Assembly: GCA_019637355.1 (NCBI GenBank)
Contig: JAHBVT010000001.1
Span: forward strand, 1,643,192 to 1,707,191
Length of the DNA stretch: 64,000 nt
Source of the DNA: Gemmatimonadaceae bacterium
GTDB lineage: Bacteria; Gemmatimonadota; Gemmatimonadetes; Gemmatimonadales; Gemmatimonadaceae
Direction of reading: 5' to 3'
The notes under the pieces are model-generated. The model ran no database searches and had not been told where the DNA came from. It was given only the letters and a program-made list of their open reading frames with translations. A program made the position numbers and the translations under genes. Each line of letters opens with the position of its first letter. Positions within the stretch are counted from its first letter, which is position 1. This document shows, piece by piece, positions 59,219 through 61,629 of the stretch.

Positions 59219-59721
59219 TGCCCGAGCAGCGGCGGACGGCCGTCCACCACGTGCTGACCACCGCCGAGGTGTCGGAGCGCACGGTGTGCCGCTTCACCGG
59301 CTTCGCCCGGTCGACGCAGCGCTACGTGTCCGTGCGACCGTCCGACGCGGCGCTGGAGCTATCGGCAACTGACGCGGGTGCTCCGGCGCGAGGGCTGGCC
59401 GATCAACCGCAAGCGCGTCCAGCGCCTGTACCAGCAGGAGGGGTTGCAGGTGCGTCGCCGGCGGCGGAAGCGGCGCGCGGTGGTGCCGCGCGTCCCGGTG
59501 GCGGTGCCGACGCGCCCGAACCAGCGCTGGAGCATGGACTTCGTGCGCGACACGCTCGGCGGTGGTCGGGTGTTCCGATGCTTCACCCTCGTGGACGACT
59601 GCACACGGGAGTGCCCCGCAATCGAGGTCGACGTATCGCTCCCCGGGGAGCGCGTGGTGCGCGTGCTCGACCGCGTCGCGGCCGTGCGCGGGTATCCGCA
59701 TGCGATCGTGTATGACAACGG
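59215..59721 (+). pseudogene. IS3 orfB remnant, 5' part (frameshifted)
   Basis: PEQRRTAVHHVLTTAEVSE and ARSTQRYVSVRPSDAAL are OrfB, then the frame shifts near 59355 and continues as SYRQLTRVLRREGWPINRKR to the first catalytic Asp region NQRWSMDFVRDTL and IVYDNG. About 15 codons are missing at the shift. The IS110 element enters at 59721. Confidence 0.8.
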
Positions 59722-59945
59722 TCTACATCCGCTGTCAAGAGTTGCGTAGGCACAGTGATGCCTTGGGCGCCCAGAAGGACGCCAGGAGAGGTGAAGCGCG
59801 ACGGGCACACGACCCCCGGTGGACTTCCACGGAACACGAGTCCCCTGCTCACCATAGTGCGGTACGCAGCATCGTCGCGTAGCGACGCGACGCGCTCAGC
59901 AGTCTCAACACAGCATGAGGGCCCAGTGGAAGGCTCGAGCATTGT
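59722..59945 (-). ncRNA. Candidate guide (bridge/seek) RNA region of the IS110-family element
   Basis: 224 non-coding bases downstream of the recombinase stop, against only 81 upstream. IS1111-type elements encode their guide RNA at this side. Predicted hairpins: CGTCGCG (59873-59879) with CGCGACG (59886-59892), GTGGA/TCCAC (59819-59830), and GGGCGCCC (about 59765-59772). The exact RNA ends cannot be set by eye. Confidence 0.5.
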
Positions 59946-61238
59946 CTACGAGGTCGCAAGCGCCTCGACGGCACGGTTGATCGGAGTCGATTCACTGGGG
60001 ACGTCGTGTTCGAAGTACGCGCGGTACGGCTGACCGGTCTTGACTACGGCATAGGCGATCCGTGCCATCTTCGCGGCGATGGCGGTGTAGGCCTTGCGCC
60101 GACGATCGGCGCTCTTGGGCGCCGTCGCCATGTAGCGCTCGAACTTGTCGCGCACGGAGTCCTCGCGACTGCGGACGGCGACGCGGCCGGCGAACCAGAA
60201 GGCGCAGCGCAGGCGGCTGTTGCCGCGCTTGGACAGCTGCTCCTGCCCCTTCGACTGGCCGGACTGCGCCTTGGCCAGGTCCAGGCCGCAGAACTTCAGG
60301 AACTGGCGGTGGTGGCCGAAGCGGCGGAGGTCGCCCCCCTCGGCGAGAATGGTGAGGGCGAAGACAGGTCCAATGCCTGGAATGGTCTGCAACAGCTGAT
60401 AGTCGGGGTGGACGCCGAGCAGGTGGTCCGCCCACGCCTCGAGCGCCGCACGCTGCCGCGACAGGTCGAGAAAGGTTTGGAGACGCAGGCGGGCAGCCTG
60501 CACCGCGGGACTGTCCGGCGGCACGGGCAGGGCCAGCGAGCGCTGCGCCAGCTCATACACGCCACGCAGCCATGCCGCCTTCCCGACCTTGCGACCGGCG
60601 GGTTTCCACGCCGCCTCGAGGAACGCCTTCTCGGTGAGCGCCGTGATGTGCTGCGGCGTCGGGAAGGCCAGCAGGAGGCTGACAAACGCCTCACTGCGCG
60701 AGGTGCGCCAATAGCGTGCGAACTCCGGCCAGTAGAGCGGCAGGAAGTGCGTCAGCAGGCTATGCTGCACGCGCGTCCGCGCCAGGGTCACCTGCCAGTA
60801 CGCCTTCGAGATTTCCTGTGCGTCGTGCCACCCGGCAACGAGCGGCTCGATGTAGCGCATCGTCATCCCCTGCTGCAGCACTTCCAGGATCACGCGTGCA
60901 TCCTTCGCGTCGTTCTTGTCCCACGAGGAATAGCGCGCCTCTCGGTACCGAGCGCAGGTGAGCGACGCGACGAAGCGCACGTCGAAGCCGGCCTGGAGCA
61001 GTCGGTACGCCAGCGGCCGATGGTAGACGCCAGTCGGCTCCAGTCCCACTCGCACGGGCTGCGGCAACGACTGCAGGTGCGCCACGAGCCGTGACACCGC
61101 CGCCAGCGAGTTCTCCACGCGGCACCGCTCGTGTCGCGCGCCATGGGCGATCAGCACCTCGTGGGCGTCCTTGGCTACGTCGATTGCAACCCACGTGCCG
61201 GGAACGACATCTTCAGGGAAGGGATGGCCAGTCGTCAT
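59946..61238 (-). CDS. IS110-family DEDD recombinase
   Basis: 430 residues from ATG 61238, preceded by CAGGAGC at good spacing; an ATG at 61265 is less likely. The N-terminal RuvC-like domain has VAIDVAKDAHEV, GLEPTGVYHRPL, and WDKNDAKDARV, giving the D-E-D-D set. The C-terminal Tnp_20 domain holds TIPGIGPVFALTILAEGG and SKRGNSRLRCAFW with the family serine. It looks intact. Confidence 0.95.
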   Translation of the reverse strand: MTTGHPFPEDVVPGTWVAIDVAKDAHEVLIAHGARHERCRVENSLAAVSRLVAHLQSLPQPVRVGLEPTGVYHRPLAYRLLQAGFDVRFVASLTCARYREARYSSWDKNDAKDARVILEVLQQGMTMRYIEPLVAGWHDAQEISKAYWQVTLARTRVQHSLLTHFLPLYWPEFARYWRTSRSEAFVSLLLAFPTPQHITALTEKAFLEAAWKPAGRKVGKAAWLRGVYELAQRSLALPVPPDSPAVQAARLRLQTFLDLSRQRAALEAWADHLLGVHPDYQLLQTIPGIGPVFALTILAEGGDLRRFGHHRQFLKFCGLDLAKAQSGQSKGQEQLSKRGNSRLRCAFWFAGRVAVRSREDSVRDKFERYMATAPKSADRRRKAYTAIAAKMARIAYAVVKTGQPYRAYFEHDVPSESTPINRAVEALATS

Positions 61239-61319
61239 CGGTGCTCCTGGTGGTCGGGATACCATCCAGGATGCCGCCGCTTTGATCGGCTGGCCATCCT
61301 CCTTCCAGATGTACTACGG

Positions 61320-61629
61320 GCCCGAGTTCGTGAGCGCGGCGCTCGATGCGTGGGCCCATCGCCACCAGGTGGTGCTCGACTCCATGGACCCGGGGAAGCC
61401 GGTCCAGAACGCCTTCATCGAGAGCTTCAACGGGACGTTCCGGGACGAGTGCCTGAACGAGAGCTGGTTTGTCAACCTTGCCGATGCCCAACGGACGATC
61501 GAAGCGTGGCGCATCGACTACGAATGCGAGCGGCCGCACAGCCGGCTCAAGGACCGCACCCCGCGCGAGTTTGCGCTCGCGCTTGCCGATGCTACAACTT
61601 CGACCGCCCTGACCCCGGGACCGGCATAA
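61320..61629 (+). pseudogene. IS3 orfB remnant, 3' part
   Basis: Resumes at GPEFVSAALDAWAHRHQVVL and carries the third acidic residue region AFIESFNGTFRDECLNESWF and RPHSRLKDRTPREFA. It joins in register of gene order to the 5' part at 59721. An artificial frame through the IS110 5' end leads into it but is not a gene. Confidence 0.85.

What the first reader, a model, noticed from the sequence alone, without database searches (positions are those of the whole stretch)
59722..59945. Candidate guide RNA in the 3' non-coding end of an IS110-family element
IS110/IS1111 elements use an RNA encoded in their longer non-coding end to choose target and donor DNA. Here 224 structured bases lie downstream of an intact DEDD recombinase. 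The target, inside the IS3 orfB gene, is known from both junctions, so the guide-target pairing can be tested directly.
Basis: partly seen in the sequence, partly recalled or inferred. Interest (0 to 1): 0.6.

Follow-up and report, generated by a model that had tools for sequence, protein, structure and literature searches.

The report
IS110 bridge RNA aiming at transposases
A small jumping DNA element carries a guide RNA that appears to direct it into the active-site coding sequence of other jumping elements' enzymes, and its relatives in other bacteria keep the same guide and the same kind of target.

Summary
The finding holds and is stronger than stated. The element (59718-61315, minus strand, 430-aa DEDD recombinase) has a second, 100% identical copy in the same genome. 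It has the IS621-type plan: a target loop (left guide 59968-59974, right guide 59940-59946) and a donor loop (59900-59905 and 59853-59859). In 34 related RNAs, 18 of 32 pairs show two-sided changes (8.6 expected). The donor guides change together with the element ends in several lineages. The target guides barely vary, because the target does not: the codons Asp-Asn-Gly of the DDE catalytic core. All three copies in this genome sit there (IS3 once, IS30-type twice), as do nearly all of 63 elements with readable flanks; one left flank is instead the D-N-G codons of mutL. Guide bases facing third codon positions are mostly wobble-tolerant. ISEc21 is a published precedent for the target class. 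New here: a clade with a stable, codon-motif-reading guide in the 3' end. Open: no retargeted relative was found, single-sequence folding energy is unremarkable, and transcription is untested.

The parts
59718..61315 (-). IS110-family element, 1598 bp (with the 4-bp CCGT the ends are ambiguous: 59722-61319 is equivalent)
   Evidence: crossover placed by relatives, where the left junction keeps the target's G/A and the right junction keeps the element's G
59946..61238 (-). DEDD recombinase (tnp), 430 aa
59993..59999 (-). P1 5' arm CCCAGUG (inside tnp), pairs with 59922-59928
   Evidence: helix 1: 98.0% of cells paired, 5 of 12 pairs with two-sided changes
59968..59974 (-). Left target guide (LTG) GUGCCGU, inside tnp; [quoted passage not shown]
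   Evidence: rank 1 for strand B in the scan (W5 and W7); position counts. Here 5 of 7 pairs with the window's target, 6 of 7 with the second copy's target (by eye)
59950..59966 (-). P2 hairpin of the target loop, with a conserved unpaired A in its 3' arm
   Evidence: helix 2: 99.4% paired; GAGG:CCUC alternates with AGGG:CCCU
59940..59946 (-). Right target guide (RTG) GACAAUG; its first base is the last base of the tnp stop codon; pairs with target top strand CGTTGTC (7 of 7, one G-U)
   Evidence: rank 1 for strand T (0.983 of positions paired over 66 elements)
59922..59928 (-). P1 3' arm CACUGGG
59912..59915 (-). P3 5' arm UGCU (donor loop), pairs with 59846-59849
   Evidence: helix 3: 4 of 4 pairs with two-sided changes, 91.9% paired
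59900..59905 (-). Left donor guide (LDG) AGACUG; [quoted passage not shown]
59869..59893 (-). P4 hairpin of the donor loop
   Evidence: helix 4: 94.1% paired, 4 of 6 pairs with two-sided changes
59853..59859 (-). Right donor guide (RDG) CACUAUG; pairs with top strand CGTAGTA of the end-to-end junction, 6 of 7
59846..59849 (-). P3 3' arm AGCA
59816..59832 (-). P5 hairpin
   Evidence: helix 5, the weakest: 84.7% paired
59714..59721 (-). Right junction CCGT/TGTC: core plus right half of the target (codons of Asp-Asn)
61316..61329 (-). Left junction GAACTCGGGCCCGT: left half of the target (codons Gly-Pro-Glu-Phe of the IS3 transposase)
59378..59717 (+). Interrupted target gene, 5' piece: IS3-type transposase, catalytic core up to Asp-Asn
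   Evidence: rve, IS3
61318..61629 (+). Interrupted target gene, 3' piece, from the Gly codon
   Evidence: rve_3, IS3

Best explanation
The element is an IS110-family insertion sequence whose 3' end encodes a bridge RNA of the IS621 kind. The RNA runs from about the last 54 nt of tnp into the 3' non-coding end. SHOWN by comparison: a conserved fold with two internal loops. The first (target) loop holds GxGCCGU before an inner hairpin and GAYAAUG after it; [quoted passage not shown] The second (donor) loop holds AGACUG and CACUAUG, which match the element's own abutted ends. INFERRED from the IS621 mechanism (Durrant 2024, Hiraizumi 2024): the recombinase uses the loops to align the circular element with the target and exchanges strands just 3' of a GT core. 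The target it reads is GAY AAY GGN, the codons Asp-Asn-Gly at the second catalytic Asp of DDE (rve-type) transposases. Guide bases facing the third positions of the Asp and Asn codons are mostly G or U and so tolerate synonymous change. The element therefore lands, antisense, in other insertion sequences of several families and disrupts their transposase.
For: Fold: 94.7% of cells paired against 87.3% shuffled and at most 53.9% slid; 18 of 32 pairs with two-sided changes against 8.6 (0 of 500 shuffles). Guides: in a scan of about 5000 RNA-window by DNA-window combinations per strand, the right target guide (0.983), left target guide (0.928 at 5 nt, 0.821 at 7 nt), left donor guide (0.929 at 6 nt) and right donor guide (1.0 at 6 nt) each rank first on their strand. 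Donor guides change with the ends: AGGACG/AGGACG, AGUACA/AGTACG, AGACUG/AGACCG, AGUCCU/AGTCCG, and UGCUAUG/AGCA, CACUAUG/AGTA, UAUCAUG/GATA, UGUUAUG/AACA; 60 and 125 of 20,000 permutations do as well. Target: 58 of 63 elements read D-N-G across the joined flanks (counted by eye); 51 of 54 right flanks match rve and 53 of 55 left flanks match rve_3. All 3 copies in the genome, one of them a left-end remnant, sit at such a site. The third base of the target's Asn codon varies (16 A and 21 G of 37 on the top strand), while the guide base facing it is always U on one strand and always G on the other. Conserved features recalled in IS621 passages (two loops, flipped-out A, guide order) are matched by the plan here.
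Against: No relative with a changed target guide was found, so the target side has no covariation; it rests on position, homology with the donor loop and match. The left target guide is well matched only over CCGU plus one G. The element's own RNA does not fold better than shuffles. U opposite G also occurs in the donor guide (AUG facing CGT), so the U at the Asn position may be structural, not an adaptation to codons. In the own genome 46 sites fit GAYAAYGGNNC and only 2 of the 40 of these that I could scan lie in rve proteins, so the guide alone does not explain why insertions are found almost only in transposases. Transcription, RNP formation and movement are untested.
Confidence: 0.85

Rival explanations
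1. IS1111-type seekRNA: the top-strand match GACAAUG comes first and the bottom-strand match is the adjacent CUCGAGCC (59932-59939), identical in 7 of 8 positions to CTCGGGCC of the left flank; no separate left guide inside tnp.
For: The RNA lies downstream of tnp as in IS1111 elements, and the top-match-first order is that reported for them (PMC11187229, sections read). In relatives YUCGGGYC pairs well at -11 to -9, -7 and -4. It would explain the Glu-Pro context.
Against: It ranks below GxGCCGU at windows of 5 and 7 nt; at 8 nt the two are about equal, 0.748 and 0.740. Its GG bases form part of the P1 extension in the RNAalifold consensus. The donor loop has left-guide, hairpin, right-guide order, which the target loop mirrors.
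Confidence: 0.1
2. Guide as described, but specificity for transposases comes from something besides the guide: contacts of the recombinase or extra pairing with GAACTC (Glu-Phe codons) rather than survival of harmless insertions.
For: Left-flank GAACTC is highly conserved. Most guide-matching sites in the genome lie outside transposases and are not occupied.
Against: Elements with Ile-Gln, Cys-Tyr, Thr-His or Lys-Glu after D-N-G exist, and one left flank is mutL, with GACATGCCGCAG in place of GAACTC. GAACTC is expected from the protein motif itself.
Confidence: 0.3
3. The conserved segment is not a guide: coding constraint at the recombinase C terminus, an attenuator, or a DNA binding site.
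For: The 5' arm, left guide and P2 overlap tnp here; the RNA alone is not unusually stable.
Against: In several relatives (for example L036, L045, L046) tnp stops earlier and the same bases are conserved while non-coding. Two-sided changes keep pairs. Guides match and co-vary with the ends.
Confidence: 0.03

Closest known systems
IS621 bridge RNA and recombinase (IS110 group; PMC11208160, PMC11208158)
   Same: Two internal loops, each left guide - hairpin - right guide; left guides pair with bottom and right guides with top strands; guides include the core; DEDD recombinase, best Foldseek match 8wt6
   Different: RNA in the 3' end and overlapping tnp; recombinase 430 aa against 328; 7-nt right target guide; GT core instead of CT; target is a protein-coding motif
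ISEc21 (IS110 family; PMC11187229)
   Same: Inserts at the codons of the second D of DDE in IS3-family transposases
   Different: Upstream NCR and 358-aa transposase; different subgroup by size; whether its guide sequence is homologous was not tested here
IS1111 family seekRNA (ISEc11, ISKpn4, ISPa11; PMC11187229)
   Same: Guide RNA downstream of tnp; extensions of 7 bp left and 3 bp right of the subterminal repeats fit
   Different: Subterminal repeat only ~6 bp here (about 8 in relatives) against 11-13; tnp 430 aa against 330-350; guide order reversed
ISMex12 and ISRel25 (named in plasmid annotation)
   Same: Same clade (56% and 51% aa identity); ISRel25 copy L176 has GATAATG and GTGCCGU and TAGGACG ends
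   Different: No description of their guides or target in the one paper search made for their names

Membership tests
IS110 family (DEDD recombinase) | RuvC-like DEDD domain plus PF02371 domain with SG motif | tested here: met
IS110 family (DEDD recombinase) | Insertion without added bases; target reading frame restored when flanks are joined | tested here: met
   VYDNGPEF in the window, LTLDNGTEF in the second copy
IS110 family (DEDD recombinase) | Circular intermediate | not testable with these tools
   no reads or bench data
Bridge RNA (IS621 type) | Conserved fold with target loop and donor loop | tested here: met
Bridge RNA (IS621 type) | Left guides pair with bottom strand, right guides with top strand, of both target and donor | tested here: met
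   left target guide partial in the window copy (5 of 7)
Bridge RNA (IS621 type) | Guide-target covariation among relatives | tested here: inconclusive
   met for donor; target guides barely vary, so not testable on this set
Bridge RNA (IS621 type) | RNA bound by the recombinase | not testable with these tools
   -
IS1111 family | Longer NCR downstream of tnp | tested here: met
   59722-59945 against 61239-61315
IS1111 family | Subterminal inverted repeats, usually 11-13 bp | tested here: not met
   TACATC/GATGTA, 6 bp here (sequence); about 8 bp GTCGGGAA/TTCCCGAC in relatives
IS1111 family | Transposase of 330-350 aa | tested here: not met
   430 aa (ATG at 61238)
IS1111 family | Top-strand match 5' of bottom-strand match | tested here: not met
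   best-supported assignment has the bottom-strand match first

The most novel reading that the evidence does not exclude
This is a clade of RNA-guided parasites of transposons. Its bridge RNA reads an amino-acid motif (Asp-Asn-Gly) at codon level, with wobble-capable bases facing degenerate third positions, which gives it targets in many DDE insertion-sequence families and lets one guide persist unchanged across phyla. The RNA straddles the recombinase stop codon, and its target and donor loops derive from one duplicated module.
Probability: 0.45. Interest if true: 0.72.

Novelty: new variant of a known kind. Interest (0 to 1): 0.55.

Why it matters
IS110 elements are described as each choosing a different site. 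Here one guide appears to have been kept while the recombinases diverged to about 45-50% identity, because the target is a codon motif that most mobile DDE genes share. That makes 'which part of the guide tolerates synonymous change' directly testable, shows an RNA-guided element acting as a brake on other transposons, and offers a compact recombinase set with natural multi-site targeting. The mutL junction suggests the same guide can also hit a DNA-repair gene through the shared motif.

Tried and rejected
Single-sequence folding energy gave no signal. Rfam has no matching family (one search gave only a chance hit far below its threshold). My first assignment of the left target guide (CUCGAGCC next to the right guide) was dropped to rival status after the scan. 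A search of 395 genomes of the window's phylum found no other genome at E 1e-60, and 289 genomes of the class of L024's genome gave one besides that genome itself, so genome sampling gave no retargeted relative. No intact copy of the interrupted IS3 exists in the own genome, so the exact empty site could not be shown there; the IS30-type site in L148 is only a homologous empty site. A promoter at the circle junction was considered (TTGACA at 59733-59738) but the -10 is poor, and my junction string carried extra flank bases, so nothing is claimed. The AlphaFold model is moderate (pLDDT 78.8, pTM 0.60) and its TM-scores to IS621 are low (0.33-0.45); it supports the family, not domain geometry.

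Parsing limits: of 82 loci (80 relatives, window, L002), 63 had both ends found by my patterns and at least 45 nt of clean flank; 19 were dropped (contig ends, truncated NCR, runs of N). The alignment uses 34 of the 57 non-redundant RNAs, chosen by me for diversity. One row (L178) has its left target guide mis-located by the script. L174's donor guide was not scored because its NCR looks hybrid. Of 9 right flanks under 40 aa none was scanned. The structure counted was drawn by eye on the same sequences; its slid and shuffled controls are given. At 7 nt the left donor guide is not rank 1 (0.796 against 0.816). The two-group comparison of GAC- against GAT-type guides was too small to test (all 5 of 37 distinct combinations with a GAT-type target carry the U-type guide).

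Full report
What is there. The minus strand at 59718-61315 carries an IS110-family element: a 430-aa recombinase gene (59946-61238) followed by 224 non-coding bases. The recombinase matches both Pfam domains of the family and the NCBIfam IS110 equivalog. DEDD and SG residues align with IS621 and are invariant in 13 relatives. The element interrupts an IS3-type orfB; both pieces match rve-type domains. The same genome holds a second copy, identical over 1616 bp including a few flanking bases, at C1:927508-929123, and a left-end remnant at C1:2125096 (85% identical over 218 nt). The second copy's flanks read LTLDNGTEF, and the remnant lies in a similar IS30-type sequence (homologous L148).

Relatives. 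A protein-based scan gave 80 loci at 50-59% identity, mostly Alphaproteobacteria, with Acidobacteria and Bdellovibrio MAGs. Plasmid records added Rahnella (46-47%) and others. All 80 loci keep a segment GTAGAYAATG near the tnp stop codon. In some, tnp stops upstream of this segment and it is still conserved, which argues for conservation at the RNA level. Ends are also conserved..TAGGACG|T at the right and |AGCAC.. at the left.

Fold. I drew a five-helix structure on 34 diverse RNAs and counted it: 94.7% of cells paired (87.3% shuffled; 33.7-53.9% slid), 18 of 32 pairs with two-sided changes (8.6 expected, 0 of 500 shuffles), 105 such cells (29.6 expected). P1 joins bases inside tnp to bases after the stop codon (98.0% paired). 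RNAalifold finds P1, P2, P3 and P4 on its own. P5 is weaker (84.7%). The window RNA alone does not fold better than shuffles (z -0.68).

Guides. Inside P1 the order is GxGCCGU, hairpin P2, GAYAAUG; inside P3 it is AGGACG (AGACUG here), hairpin P4, UGCUAUG (CACUAUG here). This is the IS621 plan, in which left guides pair with the bottom and right guides with the top strand of target and donor (PMC11208160 and PMC11208158, passages seen). An open scan of RNA windows against target and donor windows put each guide first on its strand (the left donor guide only at 6 nt). The donor guides change with the ends across lineages. In the window copy: right target guide 7 of 7, left target guide 5 of 7 (6 of 7 against the second copy's target), left donor guide 6 of 6, right donor guide 6 of 7, G-U pairs counted (by eye from the sequences).

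Crossover. Among 63 elements the base before the core T is G (43) or A (20) at the left junction, while the right junction keeps the element's G in nearly all. That is what strand exchange 3' of a two-base core (GT or AT in the target, GT in the donor) predicts; the mechanism itself is inferred from IS621.

Target. In 63 elements with readable flanks, 58 read D-N-G across the junction (counted by eye; the other five, L056, L077, L085, L087 and L099, look mutated, rearranged or tandem). Of right flanks at least 40 aa long, 51 of 54 match Pfam rve; of left flanks, 53 of 55 match rve_3. The closest NCBIfam models are IS3, IS481, IS21 and IS30. The element is antisense to the gene in this set by construction of the patterns. 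L053's left flank is MutL, at its DNGCGM motif, while its right flank is a transposase (87-88 scanned a selection of flanks): either two copies recombined or the contig is chimeric, but the junction is exact.

Codon reading. The guide bases facing third codon positions of Asp and Asn are U or C (29 and 8 of 37 distinct combinations) and always U; on the other strand the base facing the Asn third position is always G. Target bases there vary: G/A 21/16 at Asn, 31/5 at Asp (one C). So the guide tolerates synonymous codons. One caution: the donor guide has the same AUG facing CGT, so this U may be structural.

What the guide does not explain. The own genome has 46 sites GAYAAYGGNNC. Of the 40 distinct open frames of at least 40 aa containing them, 2 match rve. 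The three occupied sites are all transposases. Survival of harmless insertions is the simplest reason; extra recognition of the left flank is the rival. The mutL flank favours the former.

Loop resemblance. The ends of the target and donor modules resemble each other (median z 2.8 over 61 elements), weakly in the window copy itself (score -0.7). Shared protein contacts or a duplication could both cause this; IS621's loops are also described as similar.

Placement. By recombinase size and guide order this is IS110-group with a downstream RNA; by RNA location and the 7/3-bp end extensions it resembles IS1111. Siddiquee et al. (PMC11187229; abstract, introduction and the sections returned) note IS110-type members with a downstream NCR, and report that ISEc21 targets the second D of DDE in IS3 elements. 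That precedent lowers the novelty of the target class. Searches for the named clade members ISMex12 and ISRel25, for bridge-RNA papers and for nested or codon targets listed no description of this clade's guide; only openly licensed PMC papers were searched.

Verdict. A real bridge RNA, well supported on fold and donor side, supported by position and match on the target side, in a clade that keeps one codon-level target.

Noticed in passing
L053:1-2315: Exact left junction of a clade member at the DNGCGM codons of mutL; the right flank is a transposase. A possible non-transposase insertion that would inactivate mismatch repair, or a chimeric contig.
   Followed up: partly
G000 C1:754146-779648 and C1:2543641-2598139 (L009-L017, L019, L021, L022): Two further IS110/IS1111 groups (8 and 7 copies or so) sit among ~65-150 bp repeats; in L013 these begin TAACG and end CGTTA, like integron attC sites, a known IS1111 target class.
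   Followed up: partly
L059 and L099 left flanks: The left flank is the right end of another clade member (..CATAGGACGT), so elements can insert next to each other in tandem.
   Followed up: no
L174:3057-3460: Rahnella copy whose NCR is followed within ~260 nt by the start of a different IS110-like gene; its donor loop looks disrupted.
   Followed up: no
59733-59738: Perfect -35 hexamer TTGACA in the right end, as expected of a promoter formed in the circle, but no good -10 at the right spacing.
   Followed up: partly
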